DNA from: Janthinobacterium agaricidamnosum NBRC 102515 = DSM 9628
Lineage (GTDB): Bacteria > Pseudomonadota > Gammaproteobacteria > Burkholderiales > Burkholderiaceae_D
DNA length: 42,009 bases
NCBI RefSeq assembly: GCF_000723165.1
Contig: NZ_HG322949.1
Span: 4,703,747-4,745,755 of the forward strand
Reading direction: 5' to 3'
Below the pieces are notes generated by a model. That model did no database searches, was not told the DNA's origin, and saw nothing but the letters and a program-made list of their open reading frames with translations. Shown one piece after another: positions 1,167-42,003 of the stretch. The stretch's first letter is position 1, and every line of letters begins with the position of its first letter. The translations under genes were made by a program, and so were the position numbers.

Positions 1167-1323
1167 GAGCCTATTCCAGTAGATGAATAGCCCTCTTCTG
1201 GCGCTCCTCAGGAACGGGGACTGCGTTGATCGTCGTCGCGTGGCGCGCCACGCTTGCTCCTCACGCCTGGTCCGCGCTCCTGATGCGCGGCCAGAACAAG
1301 ACGCTCACTATTGGGATAGGCTC
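1167..1323 (-). mobile_element. MITE-like palindromic element, copy 1 (diverged, inverted)
   Basis: 157-bp copy of the repeat also found at 26930-27087 and 41846-42003, here in reverse orientation. The ends are GAGCCTATTCCAGTAG and CTATTGGGATAGGCTC, each one base away from the perfect 16-bp inverted repeat of the other copies. By eye it differs from them by about seven substitutions and one single-base deletion. The flanking triplets GTA (1164-1166) and TTA (1324-1326) no longer match exactly, so this is probably the oldest insertion. It lies between the EI24 gene and the CinA-like gene and has no coding capacity for a transposase. Confidence 0.85.
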
Positions 1324-1365
1324 TTACTGGCCTGCATTGCTCGCGACAGTTTTCCGCAGTCCTCA

Positions 1366-2193
1366 TCAGGCATCGGCGGCGGGCACATCCATCATGCTGC
1401 TCACGCCGCGCAATGCGGCCAGCGCGTCGAGGCAATAATATTGAAACCATAAACCGGTAAAGATGAAAATCACCACGTACAGCCAGATCGCCAGCGCCGC
1501 CAGGAATGGAAACAGCACCACCGACATCACGCCGCCCATCCACAGCAAGCCCGGCGCCGCGCCGGCCGCGCCGGAAATCATGCCGATCGCCAGCAAGGGC
1601 CAGCGCCGTCCGCGCAAGATGGCGCGCCGCTCGTCGTCGCTGGCGTAATCGGCCAGCGCATCGTAGGCCACCACCCGATAGGTCAACCAGCCCCACAACA
1701 CCGCATGTGCGGCCAGCGCCAGCGGCGGCACGGCGTACAGCGGCAAGGTCAGCAGCCAGGCCAGCAAAAATACCAGGAAGGCGAAAATCGCAGTGACAAA
1801 ACTGCCGAGCAAGCTGCCGCCGCGTTTTTTTTCCAGCCACGGAAAATGGCGGCCGCCGACATGGCGCGCGATCGCCGGCATCGCGGCGATGCCGATGAAG
1901 ATCAGCGCCGTCAATATCATCAGCGGCAACAGCACCAGCATCGCGATCAGCGGCACGATCACGGTTTTCAGCATGCCCAGCCCGAAACTGGACAACACGC
2001 TGCCGCTGATCTTGAACCACTCGTGTTCGACGAACAACGCTTGCAAGCTGTCGACCAACGGTTGCAAGCCCCACCACAGCAAGCCGCCCCACAAGACCAC
2101 CGACAATAAAAAAGGAATCAGGCTCAATAGCAAGATCCGGCCATGCAGTTGCGACAACAGCGCCCTGCCATAGGCGTTCAAGACGGCGCGCAT
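1366..2193 (-). CDS. EI24-domain (CysZ-like) integral membrane protein
   Basis: 275 aa with several long hydrophobic segments (about residues 20-45, 70-105, 130-160, 195-255), an arrangement typical of the EI24/CysZ superfamily of bacterial membrane proteins. CysZ itself is a sulfate permease, but nothing here points to sulfur metabolism, so the substrate is unknown. The ATG (2191-2193) overlaps the upstream desaturase stop codon as TGATG, so translation is probably coupled. It is the fourth gene of the minus-strand operon starting at 4965. Repeat copy 1 begins 42 bp beyond its stop. Confidence 0.8.
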   Translation of the reverse strand: MRAVLNAYGRALLSQLHGRILLLSLIPFLLSVVLWGGLLWWGLQPLVDSLQALFVEHEWFKISGSVLSSFGLGMLKTVIVPLIAMLVLLPLMILTALIFIGIAAMPAIARHVGGRHFPWLEKKRGGSLLGSFVTAIFAFLVFLLAWLLTLPLYAVPPLALAAHAVLWGWLTYRVVAYDALADYASDDERRAILRGRRWPLLAIGMISGAAGAAPGLLWMGGVMSVVLFPFLAALAIWLYVVIFIFTGLWFQYYCLDALAALRGVSSMMDVPAADA

Positions 2194-3188
2194 CAGTTCG
2201 ACTTACGTTTCATATATTCACACATCCTGGTCAATCCCAGCCATTGTTGTTGCCAAAAACCGCAGCCATAATCGCGCCCCGGCCGCGTTACGCCATCCTT
2301 GCCGGTGCGCGGCAATTGATCGCGGATGCCGGTAGCGGCAAAATTCTCGGAAAAATTGGCGGTGCGAAACAGCATATCCCACAGCGGCAGCACCACCCCG
2401 AAATTGCAGCCACCCAGGGTGCCCTTGCCGGCCGATTCGTGGCCGACGCCGATCGCGTGATGGGTGCGGTGAAAACGCGGCGAAATCAGCAGCCGCTCGC
2501 CAATATAACCGAAGTGCAAACGGATATTCGAATGCTGCAAGCTTTGCAAGATGCGCGACACCGATACCAGCAGCACATATTGTCCCGGCGGCACGCCGAT
2601 GGCCAGCGCGATCAAGGCCATGTAAATGTCGCGGATGACATCGTCGAGCACGTGGTTGCGGTCATCGCTCCACAAATTCATGTTTTGCTGGCTGTGATGC
2701 AAGCTGTGCAAGCCCCACCACCAGCCGAAATGATGCGACGCGCGGTGATACCAGTAATCGAAGAAATCCAGTACCACGAAATACAGCAGGAAACTGGCTA
2801 TCGGACTGATATCCGGCCACAAGGTTTCCAGGTTGACCGGGTGGATATTATCCAGCCGCAGCCAGCCGGCCAGGCTGTCCGTCAACGGGTCGAGCGTGAA
2901 AAACACCAGCACCGAAAACAGGCCGATGCGGTGCAGCACGGTGTAAATGAAATCATTCCAGCGGGCGCGCGGATCGGTCATCTTTTGCGCCGGAAACCAG
3001 GATTCCAGCGGCCGCAGCACGATGAACAGCAAGACCAGTTCGCAGATGCCGATCAGCAGCCACTCGGTGCCTTCAAACGCTTCTTCGGTATATTCTCCGA
3101 AGCCCAGGTGGTAGACCAGCGGATTGACGATGGTTTGGAACAGCCAGCCTTGCGCCACGCCAAACCAGTCCGCAAAAAATTGCATCAT
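2193..3188 (-). CDS. Fatty acid hydroxylase / sterol desaturase family membrane protein
   Basis: 331 aa. The family's histidine clusters that bind a di-iron centre are all present: HRASHH at 148-153, HSLHH at 161-165 and HRTHH at 240-244, with further His/Asp residues between (WSDDRNH about 173-179). Hydrophobic spans lie near residues 45-65, 85-105, 130-145 and 185-215. Members hydroxylate or desaturate lipid chains at the membrane using O2; the substrate here cannot be read from sequence. The start codons ATGATG at 3188/3185 overlap the deacetylase stop, and the gene's own stop overlaps the next ATG, so it sits inside a translationally coupled operon. Confidence 0.88.
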   Translation of the reverse strand: MMQFFADWFGVAQGWLFQTIVNPLVYHLGFGEYTEEAFEGTEWLLIGICELVLLFIVLRPLESWFPAQKMTDPRARWNDFIYTVLHRIGLFSVLVFFTLDPLTDSLAGWLRLDNIHPVNLETLWPDISPIASFLLYFVVLDFFDYWYHRASHHFGWWWGLHSLHHSQQNMNLWSDDRNHVLDDVIRDIYMALIALAIGVPPGQYVLLVSVSRILQSLQHSNIRLHFGYIGERLLISPRFHRTHHAIGVGHESAGKGTLGGCNFGVVLPLWDMLFRTANFSENFAATGIRDQLPRTGKDGVTRPGRDYGCGFWQQQWLGLTRMCEYMKRKSN

Positions 3189-3985
3189 GGATGGGTCACT
3201 TTGGAAGAGTAGTCAGGATGTTCCCGCATGGTAGCAAAACAAAAGCCTTTTTGCTCTAAACCAACAATCAACGCCTCCAGGTTGGCCGGCGCCCATGGGT
3301 CCTTGCGCGACCAGATGCCCATGTGCGCAATGAAAATATCGCCGTCGCGCAAATTGGCCAGCGCGCGTTTGAGCAGCATCGCGTTCGGATATTTTTCACT
3401 CGACAATTCATCGCCGGAAAAACCGGCCGGCGCCCACGCCACGTGCTGGTAGCCGCAAGCCTTGCCGGCCGCCAATGTCAGCGGCGATATCTTGCCGCCC
3501 GGCGCGCGCCACAGCGGATCGAGCTTGCTGCCGGTCAATTGCTGGAAGCGCTGGTCGACCCGCTGGATTTCCTCGCAATACTGGGCGGCGCTCCATTGCT
3601 GCTGCTTGCCGCCATCCTTGCCGAATTGCGGTTTGACATTCATCAAGCCATTCGCTTGATCGCGTTGCCAATACACATGATCAAAGGTATGCGAACCGAA
3701 GGCGTGACCTTCCGCGACGCGCGCTTTCCAGTAGGGCGCCCACGCAGGATCGAGCGAATAATCGCCACGCGTGGTTTTTTCATTGGCCAGGAAAAACGTC
3801 GCCTTGATGTGGTGCCGCTTCAAAACCTCGGCGATCAAGTCCGCCTGCGACTGGCTGCCGGTGTCGAAGGTCAGATAAATCGTGCCCTTGCAGGCCGGGC
3901 CGGACTGGGCCGAGGTGGCCGCCTGGGCCGGCAACAGCGCGGCCATGACCAGCAGCGCCAGCGCGTTTTTTTTGAATAAGGACAT
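3185..3985 (-). CDS. Secreted polysaccharide deacetylase (NodB-like), variant active site
   Basis: 266 aa with a clear signal peptide (K5-K6, hydrophobic 8-20, cleavage about AQA-A at 20-23). The NodB fold motifs are visible: TFDTG at 39-43 (motif 1) and SHTFDH at 98-103 (motif 2, H99 and H103 as metal ligands), followed by WRAPGGK and FIAHMG later. Motif 1 in most members is TFDDG, where the second Asp binds metal; here it is Thr42. The family removes N- or O-acetyl groups from peptidoglycan, chitin-like or exopolysaccharide chains in the periplasm. The gene starts 8 bp after the beta-propeller gene and overlaps the desaturase start. Confidence 0.85.
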   Translation of the reverse strand: MSLFKKNALALLVMAALLPAQAATSAQSGPACKGTIYLTFDTGSQSQADLIAEVLKRHHIKATFFLANEKTTRGDYSLDPAWAPYWKARVAEGHAFGSHTFDHVYWQRDQANGLMNVKPQFGKDGGKQQQWSAAQYCEEIQRVDQRFQQLTGSKLDPLWRAPGGKISPLTLAAGKACGYQHVAWAPAGFSGDELSSEKYPNAMLLKRALANLRDGDIFIAHMGIWSRKDPWAPANLEALIVGLEQKGFCFATMREHPDYSSKVTHP

Positions 3986-3993
3986 GGCCAGCC

Positions 3994-4965
3994 CTACATG
4001 CGCGGCGAGTGGTTCGCGAAATACACGCCATGCGGCGAGCGGCCCACCGGGATCAGCTTGATCACCTTGCGGCCAGGAATATCGATCACCGCCACTTTTT
4101 TAATCCAGCGCAAGGTCACCCACATGGTCTTGCCGTCCGGCGTAATTTCCATGCAGTCAGGACCACCCGGCACATTGATGGTGCCGACGTTTTCCAGCGT
4201 TTGCTGGTCGATGATATTGATGGTGTTCGAGACCCGGTTCGAGACGAACGTCATGCGCTTGTCGCCCAGCGCGCGGAAATTGTGCGTGCCGGCGCCCGCC
4301 TTGATGCGCTTGACGGTTTTCTGGGTCTTCCAGTCGATCACTTCCACGTAGTCGCTGCCCATGATGCCAACCAACAAATACTTGCCATCCGGCGTCATCG
4401 TGATGCCGGCCGGCGCGGGGCCGACCTTCATGGTCCACTTGACGGTCTGGGTGGTCAAATCGATCGCGCTGACTTCATTGCTGCCCTGCTGGGTAATGAA
4501 TACCATCGTGCTGCTGTCATTGAACGCCATGTGGCTCGGCAACTTGGCCAGCGGCAAGCGCTTGGCCAGCGTCAGGTTCTGGCCGTCGTAGCGGTACAGG
4601 TCGACCCGGTCCAGGCGCAGCGAATTCGACACAAACCATTTTTGATCGGGCGAAAAGCCGATCTGGTACGGGTCCAGGATATCCTTGATGCGGCGCTGGA
4701 TCTGGCCGGTCTTCGGATCGAGGAAAATCAATTCATTGCCTACCGAGCTGGCGACGATCAGCGACTTGCCGTCCGGCGTTTCCATCAAATGATGCGGCTC
4801 CTTGCCGACCGGGAAAGTCGACAGCACGCCATAGGTATTCTGGTCCAGCAATTGAACCGTCGCATCGCGCGAATTAAGAACCACCACCACCTCCGCGTGC
4901 GCCGTATTGATCGCGGAGATGAGGCAGATACTGGAAAAAACAAGGCGGCGTAGACTGCGGAACAT
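3994..4965 (-). CDS. Secreted YVTN-type beta-propeller protein
   Basis: 323 aa from the ATG at 4965. The reading frame stays open further upstream, but this start yields a proper signal peptide (MFRSLRRLVF..., cleavage after THA near residue 24), so I prefer it. The mature part is made of repeated 40-45-residue blades, each with a T-P-D-G-K / S-P-D-Q-K turn followed by V(A/S)N- or V-I-D-type strands, as in YVTN/lactonase-like seven-bladed propellers. No catalytic residues can be assigned; such proteins often bind ligands or partners in the periplasm. It is the first gene of the operon leading to deacetylase, hydroxylase and EI24 protein. I see no convincing ribosome binding site. Confidence 0.82.
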   Translation of the reverse strand: MFRSLRRLVFSSICLISAINTAHAEVVVVLNSRDATVQLLDQNTYGVLSTFPVGKEPHHLMETPDGKSLIVASSVGNELIFLDPKTGQIQRRIKDILDPYQIGFSPDQKWFVSNSLRLDRVDLYRYDGQNLTLAKRLPLAKLPSHMAFNDSSTMVFITQQGSNEVSAIDLTTQTVKWTMKVGPAPAGITMTPDGKYLLVGIMGSDYVEVIDWKTQKTVKRIKAGAGTHNFRALGDKRMTFVSNRVSNTINIIDQQTLENVGTINVPGGPDCMEITPDGKTMWVTLRWIKKVAVIDIPGRKVIKLIPVGRSPHGVYFANHSPRM

Positions 4966-5178
4966 GGGCAAAACCAATGGTAAGGAGGAAAGCCGTATTT
5001 TACGTGCAAAGCAGCACACGATTGAAGTTATTGAACACCTTATTGGCAACAATGTTGCACACACCAGAACGCCGGTGCCCGCAAACCGCGCATTTCTGGC
5101 GCGACAGCCGCATCGATGGCGGTTTCGCGGCGCTTGGACTACAATTCCAGGTTCTTTATGACACAAACAAGGAACATC

Positions 5179-5535
5179 ATGTCCATCATCACTACCGAAA
5201 CCGGCCTGCAATACGAAGAATTGACCGTTGGCGAAGGCGCCGTGGCGACCGCGGGTCAAAACGTGGTTGTGCACTACACCGGCTGGCTGCAAAACGACGA
5301 CGGCAGCGCCGGCGCCAAATTCGATTCCAGCAAGGACCGCAACGACCCATTCGAATTCCCATTGGGCGCCGGCCGCGTGATCCAGGGTTGGGATCAGGGC
5401 GTGCAAGGCATGAAAGTCGGCGGCAAGCGCAAGCTGATCATCCCGGCGGCGCTGGGCTACGGTTCGCGCGGCGCCGGCGGCGCGATTCCGCCAAACGCCA
5501 CCCTGATTTTCGACGTCGAACTGCTGGGCGTGTAA
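5179..5535 (+). CDS. FKBP-type peptidyl-prolyl cis-trans isomerase
   Basis: 118 aa. This is a single FKBP domain without signal peptide: [52 protein letters not shown] and [14 protein letters not shown] are all standard FKBP strands carrying the active-site aromatics. It catalyses proline isomerisation, assisting folding in the cytoplasm. The frame is open upstream, but ATG 5179, preceded by AAGGA eight bases away, gives the normal family N-terminus. Its stop TAA overlaps the ATG of the following lipoprotein gene (TAATG). Confidence 0.93.
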
Positions 5536-5741
5536 TGCAAGCGGCGACTGTTACAGGGATGCGCGGCGCCCTGCTGCTGGCGGTTTGCCTGCCGGCATTG
5601 GGCGGCTGCACCGCGATCGCGGTCACCTCGACAGTCGTCGGCGCCGGCGTTTCGGTGGCATCGACCGCGGTCGACGCCACCGTGCTGGTCGGCAAAGGCG
5701 TGGTCAAGGCAGGCAGCGCCGTGGCCGGGTCGGGTAACTGA
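5535..5741 (+). CDS. Small lipoprotein of unknown function
   Basis: 68 aa, starting on the ATG that overlaps the FKBP stop codon. A short hydrophobic signal (GALLLAVCLPALGGC) ends in a lipobox with Cys25 as the likely lipidated residue. The mature 43-residue part consists almost only of Ala, Val, Thr, Ser and Gly in a TAV-rich pattern (TAIAVTSTVVGAG, STAVDATVLVGKG). It resembles widespread short proteobacterial lipoproteins with no known function. The overlap with the FKBP gene indicates co-translation. No terminator follows immediately. Confidence 0.7.
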   Translation: MQAATVTGMRGALLLAVCLPALGGCTAIAVTSTVVGAGVSVASTAVDATVLVGKGVVKAGSAVAGSGN

Positions 5742-5866
5742 GCCTGGCAACTGCTTGAGTTCTCAATTCTCAGGCAAGAATACTTCCCGTTTTATCCTTC
5801 CCTTTCAAGAAACTCCACCGCTACACGGCAAAAACCGGCGCGGCGCCATATTCGAGTATCTCCTCT

Positions 5867-5906
5867 ACTGTTTTATAGCGTTTTAACACTGTTTTATTAC
5901 TATGAT
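5867..5906 (+). promoter_or_regulatory. Paired 10-bp direct repeats before a -10-like box, upstream of the acyl-CoA-binding protein gene
   Basis: ACTGTTTTAT occurs at 5867-5876 and 5888-5897, exactly 21 bp apart (two helical turns), followed 3 bp later by TATGAT at 5901-5906, which is one base from a consensus -10. No good -35 hexamer is visible; the second repeat occupies its place. This looks like an activator or repressor site pair, but the factor is unknown. Confidence 0.35.
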
Positions 5907-5956
5907 GTCGGACGTTCCTCGATTTCAGAGCAATATTTCATCCAACAGGAGACTCC

Positions 5957-6211
5957 ATGAGTTTACAAGAGCAATTCGAGCAAGCGCAGCTTGACTCCAA
6001 GACCCTGTCCGAGCGTCCGGACAATATGACTTTGCTGAAAATGTATGCGTTGTTCAAGCAAGGTTCCAACGGCGATGCGAGCGGTGACCGTCCCGGCTTC
6101 ACCGACATGATCGGCCGCGCCAAGTTCGACGCCTGGGCCGCGCTGGCCGGCACCTCGATCGAAGATGCGCAACAACAATATATCGACCTGGTCGACGACT
6201 TGAAGGACTGA
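5957..6211 (+). CDS. Acyl-CoA-binding protein
   Basis: 84 aa, the usual size for a free-standing ACBP four-helix bundle. Diagnostic parts are LSERPDNMTLLKMYALFKQ at 18-35, GDRPGF at 43-48 and GRAKFDAWAALAG at 53-65, where the Tyr/Lys/Trp residues that hold acyl-CoA are located. It buffers and delivers long-chain acyl-CoA in the cytosol. Bacterial copies are uncommon outside certain proteobacteria, and the PHA/lipid genes elsewhere in the window are compatible with such a role. The ATG is preceded by AGGAG. It stands alone; a strong terminator for the convergent proX lies just after it. Confidence 0.92.
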   Translation: MSLQEQFEQAQLDSKTLSERPDNMTLLKMYALFKQGSNGDASGDRPGFTDMIGRAKFDAWAALAGTSIEDAQQQYIDLVDDLKD

Positions 6212-6231
6212 TGCCCCAGGCACGCTGCGCA

Positions 6232-6261
6232 TAAAAAAACGGCTATCCATACGATAGCCGT
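6232..6261 (-). terminator. Intrinsic terminator of proX
   Basis: ACGGCTATC (6239-6247), loop CATAC, and GATAGCCGT (6253-6261) form a perfect 9-bp stem. Read on the minus strand it is followed by a run of seven T. The plus-strand side has no good T tract, so it mainly serves the proVWX transcript. Confidence 0.85.
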
Positions 6262-6284
6262 GGTTGTTTCAAGCCCGATTCAGC

Positions 6285-7316
6285 TTACTTTTTCGCCGCC
6301 GCCAGGGCCGCCGCGATCCAGCCGTCGAACGTTTCCTGGTGCCACTTGATCCAGCCATCGGTCTGCCGTTCGATATCTTCCGGACGATTCTGGCCGTCGC
6401 GCATGCGCTGGTTTTGCGCATTGATGTCGGCCACCGGCAATTGCATCACCTCGAATAATTTGGCCGCCGCCGGATTATGGTCGGCGAAAATCTTGTTGGA
6501 CACGATGCGCGCGGTATTCACCGGGAAGCCGTAATTGCTCCCGTCCGGCAAGGCGGTATCGACCTTGCCCTGCTCGCCCGGCAAGGCCGAGAACGGCACT
6601 TTCAGCCACACCACATCCTTGCCCGGCACCAGCACGCCACTCACCCAGTACGGGGTCCAGGTGTAATACAAAATCGGTTCGCCGCGCTGGTAGCGGCCAA
6701 TGGTGTCGGCCATCAACGCCGCGTAGCTGCCTTGCACGTGGGTCACGGTTTCGCGCAATTTATAGGCCGTCAACTGGTGTTCGATGACCGCTTCGCAACC
6801 CCAGCCAGGATTACACCCCGTCAAATCAGCCTTGCCGTCGCCGTCATGGTCGAACAATTTGGCCAGGTTAGGATCGCGCAACTGATCGATATTGGTGATG
6901 CCGTATTTGTCGGCGCTGGCCTTGTCGATCAAATAGCCTTGCGCGGCCGGCCCGGCGTACTGGCCGGTGCGCGACAGTTTGGCGTCGCCGCCGGCGTTCT
7001 TGTAAAAGTCGGCGTGCATCGGGTCCCAATGCACCGCCATGAAGGTGGCGTCGCCATTGGCGATGGCGATGTGGGCGGTCGGGTATTCGACTTCCTTGAT
7101 CGGCGCCACGTCGTAGCCCAGCTTTTGCAGCGCACGGCTGACCAGCAGGGTCTGGAAGGTTTCTTCGGCAATCGAACTTTGCAGCGGCTGCACCGCGATG
7201 CCTTTGCCGGGCAAATTATTGACAAGCACTGCTTCGGCGGCGCTGGCCAGGCCGACGCTGAAGAACAGCACGGCGCCGGCGAATACATGACGCAAATACG
7301 CATTTTTTATTATCAT
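6285..7316 (-). CDS. proX: Glycine betaine/proline-type ABC transporter, periplasmic binding protein
   Basis: 343 aa from ATG 7316, chosen because AAAGGA lies six bases upstream and a signal peptide follows (hydrophobic [17 protein letters not shown], cleavage near residue 27). The rest is an OpuAC-type binding fold: [10 protein letters not shown] and [10 protein letters not shown] carry the aromatic/His residues that form the cation-pi box for quaternary amines. It captures glycine betaine, proline betaine or choline-like osmolytes for ProVW. It is the third gene of proV-proW-proX, 14 bp after proW, with a terminator behind it. Confidence 0.9.
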
Positions 7317-7330
7317 GAAATTCCTTTTAA

Positions 7331-10502: not shown

Positions 10503-10736
10503 CCAGCTATCCTTTTTTGTCAAAACGGGTCATCCCAGCCGCAATCATGCCAGTTGCCCCTCGAGTGCGCCAGTGTTGGCGCCACCAGACCGTCGCACTT
10601 GAAGTTTGCTACAGATCAAACGAATCGACAGTCATAGGCGGACTATTTTAGTTCGATGCGCGGCGCATGCGTGACAAAAATCCGGCGTCCCATCGATGCA
10701 GCGGCAAAGCAGCCGCGTCTTTTATGGAGTATCAAC

Positions 10737-12284: not shown

Positions 12285-12314
12285 TCCCTGCAACACAAGT
12301 TAACAGGAGACTTG

Positions 12315-12605: not shown

Positions 12606-12610
12606 CCCAG

Positions 12611-12648: not shown

Positions 12649-12729
12649 CAATTAAACAAGAGAAAAAGCACGCGACAAGCGTGCCGCCAGCGCGGAGCAG
12701 GCCGCCGCCGCCCTCTCCGAAATGAATTT

Positions 12730-26876: not shown

Positions 26877-26929
26877 ACCAGCCGCAGCGCTTCGAACACG
26901 CGGCTAAAACGCATCTCGGCGGCGGCTTA

Positions 26930-27087
26930 GAGCCTATCCCAGTAGTGAGCGTCTTGTTCTGGCCGCGCATCTGGAGCGCGGACCAGGCGTGAGGAGGAAG
27001 CGTGGCGAGCCACGCGACGACGATCAACGCAGTCCCCGTTCCTGAGGCGCGCCAGAATAGGGCGTATTCATCTACTGGGATAGGCTC
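26930..27087 (+). mobile_element. MITE-like palindromic element, copy 2
   Basis: 158 bp with perfect 16-bp terminal inverted repeats GAGCCTATCCCAGTAG / CTACTGGGATAGGCTC. Flanking TTA at 26927-26929 and 27088-27090 is a 3-bp target duplication. Inside, the arms keep pairing imperfectly, and GCGTGGC-GA-GCCACGC forms a central hairpin. No transposase is encoded. The right-hand TTA is, on the minus strand, the TAA stop codon of the alpha/beta hydrolase gene. By eye identical to copy 3. Confidence 0.9.
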
Positions 27088-27981
27088 TTATTCATCGCCG
27101 CCGGCCAACGACAGAATCGCGCGCGCCACCGCCAGCGGCGCCTCCCTTTGCGGGAAATGACCGACGCCGTCGAGCACCAGGCGCCGGTACGGGCCGCTGA
27201 AGAAACGCTCGCGGTCCTTCGAGCTGTCCGGATGGTTGCACGTGTCGACGCCGCCGTGCAGCACCAGCGTCGGCACGGCCAGCAGCGGCGCAGGATCGAG
27301 CATCGCGTTATCGTCGGCGTAGCGCGCATCGCCATCGGCAAAACCCCAGCGGTGGCGGTAGGAATGCAGCACCACCGCGGCCCAGTCGGGACCGTCGAAG
27401 GCACGGCTGGCCACGTCGAAATCCTGTTCCCGGTACCAGCCCTGCGGCGCCCAGGTATCCCACATGGTGCGCGCAAACGCATGGCGCTCGTGTTCCACGC
27501 TGTGCTGGCCGCGCGGCGTGGCCAGCCACCAGTGATACCAGTAATTGCGCGCCTGCTGGTACGACAGCGCCTGGTGCGGGTCGTTGGTGCCATAACCGAC
27601 CGACAGCATCACCAGGCCGCAAGCCACTTGCGCGCGCAGGCCGCAGGCGTTGGCCACCGCCCTGGCGCCCCAGTCGTGACCGACCAATAACGGACGCTCG
27701 AGCGCCAGTGCATCGATGAAGTCGAGCAGGTCGCGGCCCAGCGCGGCCAGTTCGCCGCTGCGCCGGGTCGCCGCCGCGCGAAAGGTGGTGGGCGCAAAAC
27801 CGCGCAGCGCCGGCGCCAGCACGCGGTAACCGGCCGCGGCCAGCAGCGGCGCCGTGCCGGCCCAGCTCTCAGGACTGTCCGGCCAGCCATGCACCAGCAC
27901 GGCCGTACGTCTGCCTTGCGGATTCCACTCCAGGTAGCCGATGTCCAGCAACGGCGTCGTCACGAAACGATATTCAGGCAT
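27088..27981 (-). CDS. Alpha/beta-fold hydrolase (epoxide hydrolase/dehalogenase-like)
   Basis: 297 aa. HGWPDSPESW is the oxyanion-hole region; GHDWGA carries an Asp nucleophile, as in epoxide hydrolases and haloalkane dehalogenases rather than Ser esterases; the catalytic His is in GVGHFPQREAP. Of the two ATG codons at 27984 and 27981 the second has the better distance (six bases) from AAGGAG. The stop TAA coincides with the target duplication of repeat copy 2. It is divergent from a LysR gene with a LysR-type site between, so that regulator probably controls it. Confidence 0.88.
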   Translation of the reverse strand: MPEYRFVTTPLLDIGYLEWNPQGRRTAVLVHGWPDSPESWAGTAPLLAAAGYRVLAPALRGFAPTTFRAAATRRSGELAALGRDLLDFIDALALERPLLVGHDWGARAVANACGLRAQVACGLVMLSVGYGTNDPHQALSYQQARNYWYHWWLATPRGQHSVEHERHAFARTMWDTWAPQGWYREQDFDVASRAFDGPDWAAVVLHSYRHRWGFADGDARYADDNAMLDPAPLLAVPTLVLHGGVDTCNHPDSSKDRERFFSGPYRRLVLDGVGHFPQREAPLAVARAILSLAGGDE

Positions 27982-28032
27982 CATGCACTCCTTTTGAATT
28001 GACTTGCAGCGATGTTAGCGCGATCATTCAGC

Positions 28033-32939: not shown

Positions 32940-32961
32940 AGTGTAGGGTTTAGCAACTTGC

Positions 32962-32990
32962 TTTATATCAATTTGCCTATCATACGACAA
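32962..32990 (-). promoter_or_regulatory. Promoter of pqiABC
   Basis: TTGTCG (32985-32990), 17-bp spacer, TATAAA (32962-32967) on the minus strand. Only 22 bp separate the -10 from the preferred GTG start, so the leader would be about 15 nt. Confidence 0.55.
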
Positions 32991-33037
32991 ACTGCGCTTC
33001 GTTCCGCACCGCAACAACACGCTGTAACAATATTATT

Positions 33038-34369: not shown

Positions 34370-34373
34370 GCTT

Positions 34374-35051: not shown

Positions 35052-35076
35052 CGATTATTCCGTTCTTTCAATCAGT

Positions 35077-36369
35077 TTATGCTTCAAGCGGGCCACGGCC
35101 CGTTTCACGCGCGGCCAACACCGCCGCGCCGGTCACCAGCAGCGCCGCCGCGACATACAGCGACACGGCCAGCGTGCTGCCGTAAGCGCGGTACAGGCCG
35201 GCGATCGCCAGCGGCGCAAAACCGCCGCCGATGACGCCGGCCAGCGTGTAGGCCAGCGACGACCCGGCATAGCGCACCCGGGTCGGGAATTGTTCGATGA
35301 CGAAAGCCGCCTGCGGCCCGTACATCACGGCGTGGATCACCAGCCCGGCCACCACCGCGACGACGATCGGGATCGGTTGTGCGCTGTCGAGCAGCATGAA
35401 AAACACGAATGCCCAGGCCAGCGCCAGCAGCGCGCCGATCGCATACACCGGACGCCGGCCGATGCGGTCCGACAGCGCGCCGAACAGCGGCACCGTCAAG
35501 GCATTGCAGGCGGTGCCGATCATGATCGCGGTCAGCGCCAGCGTCGACGACAGGTGCAGCACCGTCGTCACATAGGTCAGCGTAAACACCACCACCAGCG
35601 CATACAGCACATCGGAGCCGATGCGCACGCCGCCGGCGATCAGCAGGCGCCGCCAATAGAGGCGCAGCACGTCGCCGATCGGCGCCTCGGCCTTGGCGCC
35701 GCGCTGGTCCAGCTCCGTGAACAGCGGCGTTTCCTCGATGCCGCGCCGTATCCACAGGCCGAAGCCGACCAGCAGCAGGCTGGCGATGAACGGGATGCGC
35801 CAGCCCCAGGCCAGGAAATCGCGCGCCGGCAGCAGATAGGTGATCAGGCCGATGCAGCCGGTGGCCAGCAAGGTGCCGAACGACGGCCCGACCTGGGTCC
35901 ACGAGGCGTTGCGGCCGCGCTTGTCCGGCGCGCCGTGCTCGACCGAAATCAATACCGCGCCGGCCCACTCGCCGCCCAGCGCGATGCCTTGCACGAAACG
36001 CAGCGCCACCAGCAGCATCGGGCTGGCGATGCCGGCCGTGGCGTAGGTCGGCAGCAATCCCATCAGGCCGGTGGTCAGGCCCATCATCACCAGCGTTGCC
36101 ACCAGCACGAAACGGCGTCCCAGCTGGTCGCCCAGGTGGCCGAAAATGACGCCGCCGATCGGCCGCGAAACATAGCCGACCGCGTACGTCGAAAAAGCCA
36201 GGATGGTGCCGGTCAGCGGATCGAACGATGGAAAGAACAGGTGGTTGAAGATCAGCGCCGCCATGGTGTTATAGACCGTGAAGTCATACCATTCCAGCGT
36301 CGTGCCGACCATGCTGGCGGTAGCCAGCCGGCCGGTGTTGGCCTTGCCGGCCATCGAGTGAGTGTGCAT
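35077..36369 (-). CDS. MFS transporter, metabolite:H+ symporter type
   Basis: 430 aa from ATG 36369. About twelve membrane spans; loop motifs GHLGDQLGRR and GALSDRIGRR are the duplicated MFS A motifs, and TLEWYDFTVYN with FVQGIALGGEWAGAVL is characteristic of the MHS subfamily (proline/betaine, dicarboxylate, shikimate carriers). It probably imports the substrate of the DUF2848/amidase pair. First gene of that compact trio; 88 bp after an EthD-like gene on the same strand. Confidence 0.9.
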   Translation of the reverse strand: MHTHSMAGKANTGRLATASMVGTTLEWYDFTVYNTMAALIFNHLFFPSFDPLTGTILAFSTYAVGYVSRPIGGVIFGHLGDQLGRRFVLVATLVMMGLTTGLMGLLPTYATAGIASPMLLVALRFVQGIALGGEWAGAVLISVEHGAPDKRGRNASWTQVGPSFGTLLATGCIGLITYLLPARDFLAWGWRIPFIASLLLVGFGLWIRRGIEETPLFTELDQRGAKAEAPIGDVLRLYWRRLLIAGGVRIGSDVLYALVVVFTLTYVTTVLHLSSTLALTAIMIGTACNALTVPLFGALSDRIGRRPVYAIGALLALAWAFVFFMLLDSAQPIPIVVAVVAGLVIHAVMYGPQAAFVIEQFPTRVRYAGSSLAYTLAGVIGGGFAPLAIAGLYRAYGSTLAVSLYVAAALLVTGAAVLAARETGRGPLEA

Positions 36370-36457
36370 AGGATGTCTCTTGATGATTTTATGGTTGTGC
36401 GCGCCGCGGCGTGAAGGCGCCAGAGGCCATGGCGCAGGCCTGGTCTTCCCGGGCAGC

Positions 36458-37129
36458 CTAGCGCAAGTCGCCGTCGCGCAATTGCCACGACAATTGCAGG
36501 ATCGCCGCGCCGCTTTCAGCCAGCCCCAGTTCCCGCGCCGCCAGCTGCGCAGCGAACAGCGCGGCGGCATGCGAGGAAGCGTCGACCAGCAAGATCGGAT
36601 CGAGCACACGCCCGTCCAGTTGCTCGGCCGACAGCGGACCGGATAAAGCCGCGTCCGGCGTCAGCAGGCGCGACGACATCACGCCGTCGAGGTCCAGCAG
36701 GCGCCGGCCCAGGGTGGCTACGCTGGCGAGCGCCGCGCCCTGCTGGCCGGCCGCGCCGGCGCCGAGGCGCAGCAAGGCCAGCCATGCGCCGGTGCCGGCG
36801 CCGTTCTCCGCCTCGATGGCGCAGACGCGGCGCATCGGGTCTTGCATGCGCGCCAGGTTGGCCAGCGACCAGGGCGTTTGCTGCTGGAAGGCCCGGTGAT
36901 ACTCGGGCGTCTGGAACGCCAGCAAGGAGGTGGTGCGGTACAGGCCCAGGTATTTGCGCGGACCGCTGACGCTTTGGTAGCGGGTGCCGCTGACGAAGCC
37001 GGGAATCCGCACCCGTTCCTCGACGTGTTCGCGGTCGTACCAGCGGTTGAAATCGAGATCGTGCGCCGCATCGGCGCCGGTCCAGACGAAGAGCATTCCA
37101 GGTAAATTGTGCGAGCTGGGCGTATCCAT
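36458..37129 (-). CDS. EthD/DUF4286-like ferredoxin-fold protein
   Basis: 223 aa from ATG 37129. The first half has the dimeric alpha/beta-barrel signature FNRWYDREHVEERVRIPGFVSGTRYQ, similar to DUF4286/EthD proteins; the second half appears to be a weaker repeat of the same fold. No catalytic residues are evident. Such proteins accompany catabolic operons and may be small isomerases or cofactor-free oxygenases. It lies between a LysR gene and the permease on the same strand; a candidate promoter is directly upstream. Confidence 0.65.
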   Translation of the reverse strand: MDTPSSHNLPGMLFVWTGADAAHDLDFNRWYDREHVEERVRIPGFVSGTRYQSVSGPRKYLGLYRTTSLLAFQTPEYHRAFQQQTPWSLANLARMQDPMRRVCAIEAENGAGTGAWLALLRLGAGAAGQQGAALASVATLGRRLLDLDGVMSSRLLTPDAALSGPLSAEQLDGRVLDPILLVDASSHAAALFAAQLAARELGLAESGAAILQLSWQLRDGDLR

Positions 37130-37163
37130 GGCTATCCGTTCCGAGGTAAAAGTGACGTGCCTC

Positions 37164-37192
37164 AGGATAGGTTCCGCATCGCAGCCTGGCAA
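37164..37192 (-). promoter_or_regulatory. Candidate promoter of the EthD-MFS-DUF2848-amidase operon
   Basis: TTGCCA (37187-37192), 17-bp spacer, TATCCT (37164-37169) on the minus strand. The -10 is weak (four of six), which suits an activator-dependent catabolic promoter. Confidence 0.4.
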
Positions 37193-37227
37193 ACGAGTTA
37201 TTTTTACCGCTACCGATAAGTTTTTCT

Positions 37228-38148
37228 TTAGGGTGGCGGACAATACACGCCGGCCAGCCCCTGCGCAAACCGCTCGGCCTCCTCGCACGCCAGCAGCGCC
37301 ACCAGCTCGATCGCATCGGAGGTCAAGTCTTTGCTGTAGCTGATGACGATGCGCTGCGGCCTGAGCTGGCTGGCGCAGCGGATCAGCGCGATGTTGCCCT
37401 GGTCGATTTCGTCGCGCAGCGGCGCCAGCGGCAGCACGGCGATGCCGAAGCCGGCCTTGACCAGCCGTACGATGGCGGAAATCGAACTGACGTTATGGAT
37501 GCGCTGCGGTATCACGCCCTCGGTCTGGCACAAGGCTTTAAGCGCGGTATCCGGCTGCGAACCGCGGTTCATCGTGACGATGGGGCGCTCGGCCAGTTGC
37601 GCCACCGAAAAAACCGTGTCGGGATCGGGCCAGCCGGCGGCGCAGCCTACCCAGCCCATCGCGATCGCGCCGCTGCTCGTGTTGCGGATATGCTCGCCGG
37701 CCAGCATATCGGTTTGCAGCGCGATATCGAGTTCGCCCTGCTGCAATTGCTCGTGCAGGCGGCGCGTCGATTCCGACGTCAGCTGGATTTCGATGCCGGG
37801 ATAACGCTCTTGCACCCGCTGCAGGAACGGGATCAGCCAGGTGTGCACCACCGTTTCGATGGCGCCGATGCGCACCTCGCCGACCACGTTCGACGGCGCC
37901 GCGCTGGCCGCGTACATGTCGCGGCACAGCTCCAGCATGCGTTCGGCATGCACCAGCAGCTTGCGGCCGGCGAAGGTCAGGCGGATCTCGCGCGTGTCGC
38001 GGTCGAACAGGCGCGTGCCGAAATCCTGCTCCAGCGACGCGATGCGGTTTGAAATCGCCGCCTGCGTGATGTGCAGTTTTTCAGCCGCGGTACGGAAACT
38101 GCCCAGCCGCGCGGCCCAGACGAATGCTTCGAGAAAACGGGTGTTCAA
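37228..38148 (-). CDS. LysR-family transcriptional regulator
   Basis: 306 aa; the start is TTG 38146-38148 (MNTRFLEAFVWAARLGSF...). The helix-turn-helix AAEKLHITQAAISNRIASLEQDFGTRLFDRDTREIRLT is standard, and the effector domain follows from residue 90. It is unusual in lying in the same direction as, and directly upstream of, the putative target operon (EthD-like, permease, DUF2848, amidase) rather than divergent from it. Confidence 0.9.
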   Translation of the reverse strand: MNTRFLEAFVWAARLGSFRTAAEKLHITQAAISNRIASLEQDFGTRLFDRDTREIRLTFAGRKLLVHAERMLELCRDMYAASAAPSNVVGEVRIGAIETVVHTWLIPFLQRVQERYPGIEIQLTSESTRRLHEQLQQGELDIALQTDMLAGEHIRNTSSGAIAMGWVGCAAGWPDPDTVFSVAQLAERPIVTMNRGSQPDTALKALCQTEGVIPQRIHNVSSISAIVRLVKAGFGIAVLPLAPLRDEIDQGNIALIRCASQLRPQRIVISYSKDLTSDAIELVALLACEEAERFAQGLAGVYCPPP

Positions 38149-38230
38149 GGTGCGGGATCTTTCTCAGGAAATGCGGCTCTGCCGGATTGTACCCCAGTGA
38201 AAAACCCCGCTTGCCCGAGCAATCGAACGA

Positions 38231-39466
38231 TCAGGCCAGGAAGTCGAGCAGGGTCAGCGCCACCACCTTGGTCGCCTTGCGCAAGTCTTCCAGCGCCAGC
38301 TTTTCATCGGCCTTCTTGGCGTTCGATTCCGGCACGCTGCGCGGACCTGCGCCATACATCACGATCGGAATCCCGTGTTCGCCATACAGCCGCGCATCGG
38401 CGTACAGCGGCGTGCCTTGCGCCGGGATCGATTCGCCAAGGATACTCTGCGCATTCTTTTGCAGGCTGTCGACCAGTTTTTCGGAACCCGGCAACGGCCG
38501 CAGCGCATGCGACAACAGCAGCCGTTTGATGTCGATGCTGATGCCCGACTCGCCGCTGACCGCTTGCTCGATCAAGGCGCGCAACTGCCGTTCCACCTCG
38601 GCGGTATCTTCTTCCGGAATCATGCGGCGGTCCATCTTCATGCTGACCTTGCCCGGCACCACATTGGTATTGGTGCCGCCGTCGATGCGGCCCACCAGCA
38701 TGGTCGGGCTGTCGATGCCCGGTACCTTGGACTTGATTTTTTTCAGCTCCGGCAACTGGCCGTAGATCGCATTCAAGATCTTGTTGGCGGCCTGCAAGGC
38801 GTCATGGCCGGTTTCCGGCATCGCGCCGTGGCCGGATTTGCCGTGCACGGTGATTTCCAGTTGCAAACAGGCATTGTGCGCGGTAACGATGTTGTAGCTG
38901 AAACCGGCGGCGATGGCGAAATCCGGCCGGGTCAGCTTTTGTTCCAGCAGCCAGCCCGGCCCCAGCAAGCCGCCGAACTCTTCATCGTAAGTGAAGTGCA
39001 ATTCCAGGCCGCCTTTCAACGGCAGCCCCAGCGCTTCCAGCGCGCGCACGGCGAAGATATAGGTGGCGAAATCGCATTTCGACACGGCCGCCGCGCGGCC
39101 ATGGATAAAGCCGTTCTCGACCACCCCGCCATACGGCGGATAAGTCCAGTTGTCGCCCGGCGGCACCACGTCGCCATGCGCATTGAGCGCGATGGTCGGG
39201 CCGCCGGCCTGGTACGGACGGCGTACGATCAGGTTGGTGATGCTTTGCATGCCGTAATCCTCGACCGCCTGCCGCGGCACCACGTGTTTTTCGGCGCTCC
39301 AGCCAAAACCTTCGACCAGCGCCGCGACGGTGTCGGCATGCGGTGCGTTGTTGCCGGGCGGCGTGTCGGTCGGGATCTGTATCAGTTGTTGCAGGAATGC
39401 GACTTCCTCATCGAAGTGGGCATCGATCCAGTGAGTCAGTGCGGCGCGCGGGTCTTGAGTCGTCAT
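38231..39466 (-). CDS. M20-family metallohydrolase-like protein with altered metal ligands
   Basis: 411 aa. The fold is that of ArgE/DapE/CPG2 enzymes: NAHGDVVPPGD supplies the first His and Asp, and YDEEFGG the catalytic and metal-binding Glu pair. The segment usually written GRGA-x-D-x-KGG reads GRAAAVSKCD, so the bridging Asp is not in its normal place, and the last metal His region reads SNAKKADE. It may bind one metal, use other ligands, or be inactive. It is 26 bp behind puuD on the same strand, so a role in hydrolysing a purine-derived or acylated amino compound is possible. Confidence 0.82.
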   Translation of the reverse strand: MTTQDPRAALTHWIDAHFDEEVAFLQQLIQIPTDTPPGNNAPHADTVAALVEGFGWSAEKHVVPRQAVEDYGMQSITNLIVRRPYQAGGPTIALNAHGDVVPPGDNWTYPPYGGVVENGFIHGRAAAVSKCDFATYIFAVRALEALGLPLKGGLELHFTYDEEFGGLLGPGWLLEQKLTRPDFAIAAGFSYNIVTAHNACLQLEITVHGKSGHGAMPETGHDALQAANKILNAIYGQLPELKKIKSKVPGIDSPTMLVGRIDGGTNTNVVPGKVSMKMDRRMIPEEDTAEVERQLRALIEQAVSGESGISIDIKRLLLSHALRPLPGSEKLVDSLQKNAQSILGESIPAQGTPLYADARLYGEHGIPIVMYGAGPRSVPESNAKKADEKLALEDLRKATKVVALTLLDFLA

Positions 39467-39492
39467 AGTGTCTTTCCGTTTGAAGTTACAGC

Positions 39493-40728
39493 TTATTTTG
39501 CACCGGCGGCGAACCAGGCGCCCAGCATGGCGCGTTCGTCTTCCGTCATATTGGTCAGGTTACCGATCGGCATGGCCTTGAGTTGCACCGCCTGTTTATA
39601 GATTTGCGCCGCATGCTGGTGGATCGCCTCCGCGCTGTCGAGCATGATGCCGGCCGGCGCGGTGGCGAAACCGGGCTGGCTCGGCTGGGCCGCATGGCAG
39701 GTCGCGCAGCGCTGCGCGATGACCGCCTGCACTTTCAAAAATTGCGCGGCCGGATCGGGCACGCCGGCGCCAGCCACCGGCGCCGGCGGGGCTTTCGGCG
39801 CCGGCGGCGCGATCGCGACGGCAACCGCCAGCAGCAAGGCCACGCCGAGCACAGGATAGCCCCACACCACGCGGCCCTTGTGGCGCAAATTGAAAAAGTG
39901 ACGGATGAATACGCCGGCCGCCATGATGAAGGCCAGCACCAGCCAGGCATGCTGGTGGCGATAGGTCATCGCGTAATGGTTGCTGATCATGATGAACAGC
40001 ACCGGCAGCGTGAAATAATTGTTGTGCACGCTGCGCTGCTTGGCTTTGCGTCCATGCTCGGGATCCGGCAGCTTGCCGGCCGACATGGCCTCGACCATCT
40101 TGCGCTGGCCGGGAATGATCAGCATCAGCACGTTGGCCACCATGATGGTGCCGATCATCGCGCCGACGTGGATGTAGGCCGCGCGGCCGCTGAGGAACTG
40201 GGTCAGCACCCAGGCCGCGCCGACCAGCAGCGCAAAGATCGTCACGCCAAACCACAATTCGTATTTGGCCAGCCTGGAGCGGCACAAGGTATCGTAAACC
40301 ACCCAGCCCAGCACCAGCGCGCCGATGCCGATGCCGATCGCTTGCCAGCTGCCGATGTCGGCCACCGCTTTGTCGACCATCATCGCCTGCGCGTTGAAAT
40401 AATAGGCGATGGTCAACAGCGCGATGCCGGACAGCCAGGTGGTATAGGCTTCCCATTTAAACCAGTGCAAATCCTTCGGCAGCTCGGCCGGCGCCACCAG
40501 ATATTTTTGCGGATGGTAAAAGCCGCCGCCATGTACCGCCCATAATTCGCCCGACACGCCCTTCCTGGCGAGGTCGGAACCGGGCGCCGGCGGACGGATC
40601 GAATTATCGAGCCAGACGAAATAAAACGAAGCGCCGATCCAGGCGATGCCGGTGATCAGGTGCAGCCAGCGCACGATCAGGTTGAGCCATTCAAGGCCGT
40701 ACGGTATCAGATAGGCAAAAACTTCCAT
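39493..40728 (-). CDS. puuD: Urate hydroxylase PuuD with C-terminal cytochrome c
   Basis: 411 aa. About eight to nine membrane spans begin with LNLIVRWLHLITGIAWIGASFYFVWLD, the PuuD signature; WAVHGGGFYHPQKY follows. The last 100 residues after a Pro/Ala-rich linker contain CATCH, a single c-type haem site, as in membrane-bound urate oxidases. The enzyme converts urate to 5-hydroxyisourate and passes electrons to the respiratory chain. AAGGA stands before the ATG. Divergent from a LysR gene, its likely regulator. Confidence 0.92.
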   Translation of the reverse strand: MEVFAYLIPYGLEWLNLIVRWLHLITGIAWIGASFYFVWLDNSIRPPAPGSDLARKGVSGELWAVHGGGFYHPQKYLVAPAELPKDLHWFKWEAYTTWLSGIALLTIAYYFNAQAMMVDKAVADIGSWQAIGIGIGALVLGWVVYDTLCRSRLAKYELWFGVTIFALLVGAAWVLTQFLSGRAAYIHVGAMIGTIMVANVLMLIIPGQRKMVEAMSAGKLPDPEHGRKAKQRSVHNNYFTLPVLFIMISNHYAMTYRHQHAWLVLAFIMAAGVFIRHFFNLRHKGRVVWGYPVLGVALLLAVAVAIAPPAPKAPPAPVAGAGVPDPAAQFLKVQAVIAQRCATCHAAQPSQPGFATAPAGIMLDSAEAIHQHAAQIYKQAVQLKAMPIGNLTNMTEDERAMLGAWFAAGAK

Positions 40729-40792
40729 GGATTTCCTTCAAGCGGGACGGCAAAGATAGTGGATAAACTTACTGCATTATTGAGCAAACAGC

Positions 40793-40830
40793 CGAGCCAA
40801 AGCGTAGGCTCGAAGCTGCCCTAAGTTAGG
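40793..40830. promoter_or_regulatory. Dyads in the puuD-LysR divergent region
   Basis: CGAGCC-N8-GGCTCG (40793-40812) and CCTAA-G-TTAGG (40820-40830) are perfect inverted repeats in the gap between the divergent puuD and LysR genes. They are candidate binding sites for the adjacent regulator; neither is a clear T-N11-A box. Confidence 0.4.
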
Positions 40831-40912
40831 CAAGATAAACTGAATTGTCTCTGGCCACATGAAAAATCACGTATATTTGACATATTCGTTTTCATATACA
40901 CCCCAGCCAGCC

Positions 40913-41845
40913 ATGTCCAGCCTGCCACAACATCTCGATCTGCACCTGATCCGCATCCTTTATCTCTTGTTAGTCGAGAAAAACGTCTCGCGCGTGGCGC
41001 TGAAGCTGAACCAGCCGCAGCCGTCGATTTCGGCGTCGCTGCGCAAATTGCGCGAATTGACCGGCGACCCGCTGCTGGTGCGCGGCGCGCGCGGCATGGT
41101 GCCGACCCAGCATGGCGAAAGCTTGCTCAATCCGGCCAAGCGCATCCTCGACCAGACCGAAAGTTTGTTTGTCAAAAAGACCCCGTTCGTGGCCCAGGAA
41201 GAGGCGCGCACCTTCCATATCGCCGCCCCCGATTATCTCGACAGCCAGTTCCTGCCGAACGTGGTGGCGCTGCTGCGGCGCGGTTCGCCGAAAAGCCGGG
41301 TGGTGATCCACAACCTCGGCGCCGGCGTCGATTACATCCGTTTGTTGTCAGATGGCGACATGGACCTGGTGATCGCCAACTGGGACGAACCGCCGGCCCA
41401 CCTGCACATTTCCAAGCTGTTCGAAGATCCGATCATTTGCACCATGCACGCCGAAAGTGCCTACGCGCGGCGCACCGCCAGCGATGCGATGACCGTGGCC
41501 GACTACCTGAGCCTGCCGCATATCGCGCCGTCGCAAATGCTGCCCGGCTACCACGGCGTGATCGACGCCTTCCTCGAACGGCATAACCTGCAGCGCAACG
41601 TGGTGGTCGAATCGTCGTACTTCGGCCTGATTCCCTATATGCTGACGCAAACCGACCTGGTGCTGACCACCGGGCGCCAGTTCATGCGCTTTTATGAAAA
41701 GACGCTGCCGCTGAAAAGTTATGCCGTGCCGCTGAAATTCCCGCCGATGCGCTTTTATCAATTGTGGCACCAGCGCGTACACCAGGCGCCGGAACATAAA
41801 TGGCTGCGCGACCAGGTCAGCGCCGCCGCCAAGGCGCTGCGCTAA
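40913..41845 (+). CDS. LysR-family transcriptional regulator
   Basis: 310 aa from ATG 40913, which yields the typical MSSLPQHLDLHLIRILYLLL start; an in-frame ATG at 40859 would add 18 atypical residues. HTH: VSRVALKLNQPQPSISASLRKLRELTGDPLLVRG. The effector domain begins near residue 90. It is divergent from puuD and probably regulates purine breakdown. Its TAA stop (41843-41845) is also the left target duplication of repeat copy 3. Confidence 0.9.
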   Translation: MSSLPQHLDLHLIRILYLLLVEKNVSRVALKLNQPQPSISASLRKLRELTGDPLLVRGARGMVPTQHGESLLNPAKRILDQTESLFVKKTPFVAQEEARTFHIAAPDYLDSQFLPNVVALLRRGSPKSRVVIHNLGAGVDYIRLLSDGDMDLVIANWDEPPAHLHISKLFEDPIICTMHAESAYARRTASDAMTVADYLSLPHIAPSQMLPGYHGVIDAFLERHNLQRNVVVESSYFGLIPYMLTQTDLVLTTGRQFMRFYEKTLPLKSYAVPLKFPPMRFYQLWHQRVHQAPEHKWLRDQVSAAAKALR

Positions 41846-42003
41846 GAGCCTATCCCAGTAGTGAGCGTCTTGTTCTGGCCGCGCATCTGGAGCGCGGACC
41901 AGGCGTGAGGAGGAAGCGTGGCGAGCCACGCGACGACGATCAACGCAGTCCCCGTTCCTGAGGCGCGCCAGAATAGGGCGTATTCATCTACTGGGATAGG
42001 CTC
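41846..42003 (+). mobile_element. MITE-like palindromic element, copy 3
   Basis: 158 bp, by eye identical to copy 2 and in the same window orientation, with perfect 16-bp terminal inverted repeats. Target duplication TAA at 41843-41845 and 42004-42006; the first is the stop codon of the LysR gene. The sequence downstream is outside the window. Confidence 0.9.

What the first reader, a model, noticed from the sequence alone, without database searches (positions are those of the whole stretch)
1167..42003. A family of 157-158-bp palindromic MITE-like elements with TNA target duplications
Three copies (1167-1323 inverted, 26930-27087, 41846-42003) share 16-bp terminal inverted repeats beginning GAGCC, a further imperfectly paired interior and a central GCGTGGC/GCCACGC hairpin. 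Copies 2 and 3 carry intact 3-bp duplications (TTA, TAA). This is seen directly. TNA duplications and GAG-type ends are known for the IS1031 group of the IS5 family, so mobilisation in trans by such a transposase is an inference. Three copies in 42 kb suggests a high genomic copy number.
Basis: partly seen in the sequence, partly recalled or inferred. Interest (0 to 1): 0.75.

Follow-up and report, generated by a model that had tools for sequence, protein, structure and literature searches.

The report
Mobile repeats carrying a conserved fold
The three repeats are copies of a short non-autonomous mobile element scattered through this Janthinobacterium genome, and their middle is not filler: it is a folded hairpin with counterparts in many other proteobacteria and myxobacteria, in elements whose ends differ from genome to genome.

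Summary
The 157-158-bp elements have 16-bp terminal inverted repeats. A copy-specific 20-mer finds about 86 copies in the genome. Of 76 full-length copies, 63 have identical flanks, all TTA or TAA, and relatives show empty sites. Relatives in the family carry ~910-bp IS5-family insertion sequences with the same ends and duplications; this genome shows only a truncated relic. The MITE reading is supported.

A ~70-nt core (AGGCGYGASGAS - variable hairpin - SGASGAGCAACG) forms a stem with near-invariant tandem G.A/A.G mismatches, and its pairs covary strongly. Covariance models found it in 53 of 398 Pseudomonadota, 74 of 282 Myxococcota and 73 of 141 genomes of the family. Three Rfam scans matched no family above threshold there. 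Elsewhere it sits in elements with other terminal repeats, once (~160 bp) or twice inverted (~260 bp), mostly about 44 bp from the tip. G.U exceeds A.C at paired positions, suggesting that one strand's fold is selected; low-frequency variants within this genome show no such excess. I infer a folded single strand, RNA more likely than DNA, that serves the element's own spread. That function is unproven. Literature novelty could not be checked: most paper searches failed.

The parts
1167..1323 (-). MITE copy 1, 157 bp, flanks GTA/TTA (no intact duplication)
1212..1280 (-). structured core of copy 1
   Evidence: R2 match 65.7 bits, E 1.2e-14
26927..26929 (.). left target duplication TTA of copy 2
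26930..27087 (+). MITE copy 2, 158 bp; ends GAGCCTATCCCAGTAG at 26930-26945 and inverted at 27072-27087
26973..27041 (+). structured core of copy 2
   Evidence: R2 match 67.8 bits, E 3.2e-15
27088..27090 (.). right target duplication TTA of copy 2; it is also the stop codon (TAA, minus strand) of the reading frame 27088-27984
41843..41845 (.). left target duplication TAA of copy 3; it is also the stop codon of the reading frame ending at 41845 (plus strand)
41846..42003 (+). MITE copy 3, 158 bp, identical to copy 2
41889..41957 (+). structured core of copy 3
   Evidence: R2 match 67.8 bits, E 3.2e-15
42004..42006 (.). right target duplication TAA of copy 3

Best explanation
The repeats are a non-autonomous DNA transposon (MITE), moved in trans by an IS5-family DDE transposase that recognises GAGCCTATCCCAGTAG ends and inserts at CTWAG, duplicating TWA. 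Shown: ends, duplications, empty sites, copy number, and insertion sequences with the same ends in relatives. Its interior is a conserved folded module: a covarying outer stem, then G-C, a G.A/C.A step, G-C and C-G, a tandem G.A/A.G step, one pair, a second tandem G.A/A.G step, one pair, and a hairpin of free sequence. Shown by covariation. The module recurs in elements with other terminal repeats, mostly about 44 bp from the tip, so core and ends evolve separately. Inferred: the module works as a folded single strand, RNA more likely than DNA, and helps the element spread rather than serving the host at each site.
For: Mobility. Partner; relic. Core: MAFFT alignment A5 (20 rows, Oxalobacteraceae and Myxococcota) gives 12 RNAalifold pairs, 10 with compensatory changes. 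A6 (36 rows) gives 18 pairs, 16 compensatory, covariation score 0.684 against 0.181 shuffled and at most 0.130 when slid. The model-fitted A7 (92 distinct rows) gives 0.751 against 0.178, with 555 both-side changes against 171. Near-invariant mismatches in A6: 19.59 G.A 33/36, 20.58 A.G 33/36, 22.54 G.A 30/36, 23.53 A.G 31/36, 15.63 G.A 35/36, 16.62 C.A 35/36. Distribution. In the 42-kb window model R2 finds the three elements and nothing else at E <= 0.01. Spacing: core 43-46 bp from the tip in 30 of the 43 elements whose terminal repeat had 15 or more matches (65 examined). One strand: G.U 73 against A.C 21 inside the model and 137 against 75 outside it. Element-level constraint: within this genome pair states seen in 6 or more copies give G.U 6, A.C 1, and states in 1-2 copies G.U 9, A.C 15.
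Against: No RNA, transcript or activity was seen. Orientation towards the nearest upstream gene is not significantly biased (58:42, p 0.13, 133 copies), which gives no support to a strand-specific role in the host message. The strand-asymmetry counts are over related rows, so their p values are optimistic; the within-genome split rests on few events. Five complete-ended partner insertion sequences have no core match, so their transposase does not need the core for its own ends. In the genus the partner was not found as a close homologue outside the relic. Spacing departs from 43-46 bp in 13 of 43, and 22 of 65 were left out for weak terminal repeats. Quasipalindrome correction could produce part of the covariation.
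Confidence: 0.6

Rival explanations
1. DNA-level end module: extruded as a hairpin or cruciform, the core at a fixed distance from the tips brings the two ends of a very short element together, or marks them, for excision or insertion.
For: Core 43-46 bp from the tip in 30 of 43 elements with unrelated terminal repeats. Two-core elements have the second core 40-46 bp from the other tip in 11 of 11 measured. Constraint looks element-level.
Against: A cruciform folds both strands alike, whereas G.U exceeds A.C on one strand. There is no bias of the core strand towards leading or lagging replication in this genome (39:35). The partner insertion sequences lack the core.
Confidence: 0.27
2. Ordinary MITE with a passive interior: the palindrome is a by-product of how the element arose, and the pairing is kept by intrastrand template switching (quasipalindrome correction).
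For: Palindromes can be corrected this way (recalled knowledge). Single copies seem to decay without constraint.
Against: Correction would erase the tandem G.A mismatches, which are near-invariant in A6, and would not favour G.U over A.C. The same core lies in elements with unrelated ends in two phyla.
Confidence: 0.08
3. Host-serving 3' element: inserted at stop codons, the hairpin ends or protects transcripts, and copies are kept because they help the host.
For: 31 of 74 copies in this genome and 33 of 59 in relatives sit at a called stop codon; 45 convergent and 61 tandem against 10 divergent sites among 133.
Against: No significant orientation bias. Single copies show no sign of constraint. 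The target preference CTWAG, and the harm done by insertions inside or upstream of genes, can account for the placement.
Confidence: 0.1
4. REP/BIME-like or attC-like single-stranded DNA hairpin moved by a Y1 transposase or an integrase instead of the DDE enzyme.
For: Two inverted structured units recall a BIME, and the same intergenic habit.
Against: 3-bp target duplications and matching DDE insertion sequences. Recalled REP size (about 20-40 nt) does not fit.
Confidence: 0.04

Closest known systems
Miniature inverted-repeat transposable elements of the IS5 family
   Same: Short, no gene, terminal inverted repeats shared with an IS5-family insertion sequence, TNA duplication, high copy number.
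   Different: In a usual MITE the ends define the family and the interior is free or derived from the parent. Here the interior core is conserved across two phyla while the ends differ, and the parents read here lack the core.
ERIC, Correia/NEMIS, RUP and BOX repeats (from memory)
   Same: Intergenic palindromic repeats with a folding strand, several thought to be mobilised in trans.
   Different: Recalled as confined to related hosts. No match of the window element in 5,426 E. coli genomes, where ERIC is known from memory to occur. No comparison with the other repeats was run.
REP/BIME with RAYT
   Same: Inverted pairs of structured units in intergenic DNA.
   Different: Target duplications, DDE-type partner, a core of about 70 nt with tandem G.A steps.
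Structured RNA families of Rfam 15
   Same: Strong covariation with invariant non-canonical steps.
   Different: No family reached its gathering score over any core: scans of the window, 8 loci and 16 loci. One weak Cobalamin match (19.4 bits, gathering 31.5, E 0.72) overlaps the element in L228.

Membership tests
MITE (non-autonomous DNA transposon) | short element with terminal inverted repeats | tested here: met
   72 of 92 TIR-paired elements are exactly 158 bp
MITE (non-autonomous DNA transposon) | target-site duplication | tested here: met
   63 of 76 full-length copies with identical 3-bp flanks, all TTA or TAA; 40 of 59 in relatives
MITE (non-autonomous DNA transposon) | empty orthologous sites | tested here: met
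   10 sites tried in 12 congeners: for 5 sites at least one relative aligns straight across the junction. At site 461496, 10 of 12 do and none of those loci holds a matching end
MITE (non-autonomous DNA transposon) | autonomous relative with the same ends | tested here: met
   5 of 10 loci with a close transposase match (L193-L202) have both ends, 905-916 bp; in this genome only a truncated relic with one end
IS5 family (the partner) | DDE transposase of IS5 type | tested here: met
   L197: PF13340, PF01609; NF033580 IS5 family at 144.9 bits over cut-off 110 in the second frame, and 105 bits, just under it, in the first
IS1031 group of IS5 | TNA duplication and GAG ends (recalled) | tested here: met
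   TTA/TAA only; ends GAGCC
IS1031 group of IS5 | single transposase frame (recalled) | tested here: not met
   L197 has two overlapping frames of 152 and 156 aa with a run of seven A in the overlap
IS427 group of IS5 | two frames joined by frameshift, 2-bp TA duplication (recalled) | tested here: not met
   two frames met, but the duplication is 3 bp TWA
Rfam structured RNA | score above a family's gathering threshold over the core | tested here: not met
ERIC | sequence match in E. coli | tested here: not met
   window element against E. coli genomes, blastn, E <= 1e-3: no match
REP/BIME | no target duplication; conserved GTAG foot; RAYT gene | tested here: not met
   duplications present; the foot and a RAYT gene were not tested
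Functional RNA | transcription of the core | not testable with these tools
   no expression data

The most novel reading that the evidence does not exclude
A cross-phylum superfamily of bacterial mini-transposons in which a folded core, constrained on one strand and set about 44 bp from the element's tip, is the conserved unit and the terminal repeats are the exchangeable part, changed to exploit whichever insertion sequence is at hand. The core would then be a selfish structured RNA (or single-strand hairpin) that rides on IS5-type and perhaps other transposases: the reverse of how MITEs are usually defined.
Probability: 0.45. Interest if true: 0.9.

Novelty: new variant of a known kind. Interest (0 to 1): 0.76.

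Why it matters
MITEs are usually read as dead internal-deletion products defined by their ends. If the interior fold is what persists across Pseudomonadota and Myxococcota while the ends change, a short non-coding hairpin is itself the unit of selection. The strong covariation and the near-invariant tandem G.A steps give a concrete target: something should bind or use this fold. It also gives a covariance model with which to annotate intergenic repeats: the two plasmid records inspected had no annotated feature under the match.

Tried and rejected
Rejected: (a) the core as a known RNA: Rfam scans over the window and 24 loci gave no family above its gathering score over an element. (b) Mobile mainly by plasmid or phage: the window element has no match in plasmids; an exact core pattern hit only one IMG/VR contig; the 268-bp element of L236 has no phage match and 4 plasmid records; the L230 element has no plasmid match. 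(c) Single-strand mobility tied to replication: 39:35. (d) A strand-specific role in the host message: the orientation lean at stop codons in this genome (20:9, p 0.06) vanished in relatives (12:14). (e) Insertion only because TAA is a stop: the preferred target is CTWAG. Stop codons are 50 of 2063 TAA/TTA in the flanks, 50 of 1183 outside called genes, so 31 of 74 is an excess, but selection against insertions elsewhere explains part of it.

Against my reading or unresolved: near site 1277279 two relatives (L347, L349) have a weak core match in the same region, so that site is not cleanly empty in them. Core-less short forms exist (44-121 bp); the ones with this element's ends are of unlike internal sequence, but my list of short forms is partial because one search printed only the first places. 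Six of 86 places with the internal 20-mer have no paired end within range. The gene caller is my own simple codon model. The genome-wide model searches scored only 12 to 35 candidates per genome, so copy counts there are lower bounds, and one search used strict filters.

Failed: seven of nine paper searches ended in error. Two ran: one search returned one paper (title and start of abstract seen only), for the terminal-repeat letters, returned none. I read no paper. What I say of MITEs, IS1031, IS427, ERIC, REP, RUP, BOX, attC and quasipalindrome correction is recalled.
Full report
OBSERVATION. The three elements are present as described. The window is part of a single 5.95-Mb contig. An internal 20-mer gives 87 matches in the genome with 0 in the reversed control. 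I fetched 86 of these 87 places; 80 lie in an element with paired ends and 6 do not. In all, 92 TIR-paired elements were read, 72 of exactly 158 bp. Of 76 full-length ones, 63 have identical 3-bp flanks, 37 TTA and 26 TAA. The 72 exact-length copies comprise 61 distinct sequences with a mean pairwise difference of 5.8%. The host genus is Janthinobacterium by inference: a congener of the window's genome (G854) has a contig of 1,768,031 bases, the length of Janthinobacterium sp. SUN073 contig 1.

MOBILITY. Ten insertion sites, flanks joined, were searched in 12 congeners. For five of the ten at least one relative aligns straight across the junction; I aligned four of these base by base. At site 461496, 10 of 12 relatives are empty, 7 of the 10 with TAA at or within two bases of the junction. 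None of the 24 relative loci checked holds a pair of matching ends. Near one site (1277279) two relatives have a weak core match. The preferred target over 102 sites is CTWAG. With a simple codon-model gene caller, 31 of 74 copies here and 33 of 59 in relatives sit at a stop codon, 8 of 133 lie inside a called gene, and orientation towards the nearest upstream gene is not significantly biased (58:42).

PARTNER. A truncated IS5-type transposase gene lies beside one exact 16-bp end at 5,882,555 of the genome. Its first 120 codons matched 39 of 145 genomes of the family. Of ten loci with close matches (63-82% identity), five have both ends, 905-916 bp, and four of these five have identical TTA or TAA flanks. 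In one of them (L197; its genome has 11 copies) I read two overlapping frames of IS5 type with DUF4096 and DDE_Tnp_1 domains. The seven congeners sampled there had no match or one of at most 39% identity, although all seven have core matches (3 to 13 each). So trans mobilisation is well supported for the lineage, but the present-day enzyme in this genus is not identified.

THE CORE. An exact-end pattern over GTDB genomes returned 23 loci: 12 Janthinobacterium, 4 Massilia and 7 Myxococcota, Minicystis rosea among them (counted from its list). Their outer stems differ in sequence but pair. A MAFFT alignment of 20 cores gave 12 RNAalifold pairs, 10 with compensatory changes. With the structure written out, the covariation score was 0.423 against 0.159 in shuffles and at most 0.165 when slid. 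Model R1 built from it hit 53 of 398 Pseudomonadota genomes. Adding distant rows (36 in all) raised the score to 0.684 against 0.181, and RNAalifold then found 18 pairs, 16 compensatory. Model R2 hit 74 of 282 Myxococcota and 73 of 141 genomes, 29 of 44 genera, of the family. Its 93 matches over 74 sources gave 0.751 against 0.178; this last alignment is fitted to the model. In the window R2 finds the three elements and nothing else at E <= 0.01.

NON-CANONICAL STEPS. In A6 the paired columns enclose G.A 33/36 with A.G 33/36, then after one pair G.A 30/36 with A.G 31/36, and nearer the outer stem G.A 35/36 with C.A 35/36. These look like tandem sheared G.A pairs; the geometry is inferred from sequence.

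VEHICLES. The same core sits in elements of different ends. I looked for terminal repeats around 65 cores; 43 had 15 or more matched bases. They fall mostly at 150-182 bp (24) or 257-274 bp (14), and the core starts 43-46 bp from the tip in 30 of 43. In 13 loci the model finds a second core on the other strand; in the 11 measured it lies 34-36 bp from the first and 40-46 bp from the other tip. The predicted fold of such elements is a terminal-repeat stem carrying two core hairpins. Named carriers of the long form are Azotobacter chroococcum, Halomonas sp. PA16-9 and Pseudomonas aeruginosa plasmid records, at 74-78% identity. Against a long element from another family (L238) only a 51-nt stretch inside the core matches the Azotobacter and Halomonas records. 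The five complete-ended insertion sequences have no core match.

WHICH STRAND. A double-stranded cruciform has no preferred strand; a single folded strand tolerates G.U or G.T on that strand only. In 82 non-redundant rows the model's pairs show G.U 73 against A.C 21 (fitted rows, so biased towards G.U). Outside the model, with an aligner that treats both mismatches alike, it is 137 against 75 over 62 of 83 distinct rows (21 dropped for weak pairing), with more rows leaning to G.U (34) than to A.C (14) and 14 ties. Within this genome, pair states seen in 6 or more copies show G.U 6 and A.C 1, while those seen once or twice show G.U 9 and A.C 15. This suggests that the lineage that transposes is constrained and inserted copies are not. 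The events are few.

MECHANISM. Shown: mobile element, matching insertion sequences, conserved covarying core, its breadth. Inferred: the core acts as a folded single strand; RNA is favoured over DNA because of the strand asymmetry and the lack of replication-strand bias (39:35); it serves the element. A DNA end module is the main rival, favoured by the fixed spacing. No function is demonstrated.

NOVELTY. Rfam has no family scoring above threshold over these elements. Seven of nine paper searches failed, so I cannot say whether the class is in print. I therefore file it as a new variant of a known kind and keep the bolder reading in the section on the most novel reading.

Noticed in passing
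G000:C1:320405-320577 (L096:1276-1448): A diverged 173-bp sibling (ends GAACCT) directly abuts a 158-bp copy and shares the TAA between them; a second tandem pair lies at 2989206-2989524.
   Followed up: partly
G000:C1:605973, 1798316, 2347749, 2951749, 3205284, 4041411: Short forms of 45-121 bp with identical TTA or TAA flanks and little or no core, each of different internal sequence.
   Followed up: partly
G000:C1:1235152, 3205014, 1482783: Diverged 44- and 72-bp palindromes with related ends and a shared GGCGATGT stretch, possibly an older core-less family.
   Followed up: no
L226: Three core matches in tandem on the same strand, unlike the inverted pairs elsewhere.
   Followed up: no
L282, L283 (IMGVR_UViG_3300022695_000189): Two exact core patterns on one contig filed as viral; not examined further.
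   Followed up: no
L229, L232, L244: Loci of other Burkholderiales genomes; L229 carries the core in a 236-238-bp element with ends ACCTAAAAACCTCAG and TCA flanks, a different kind of terminus.
   Followed up: no
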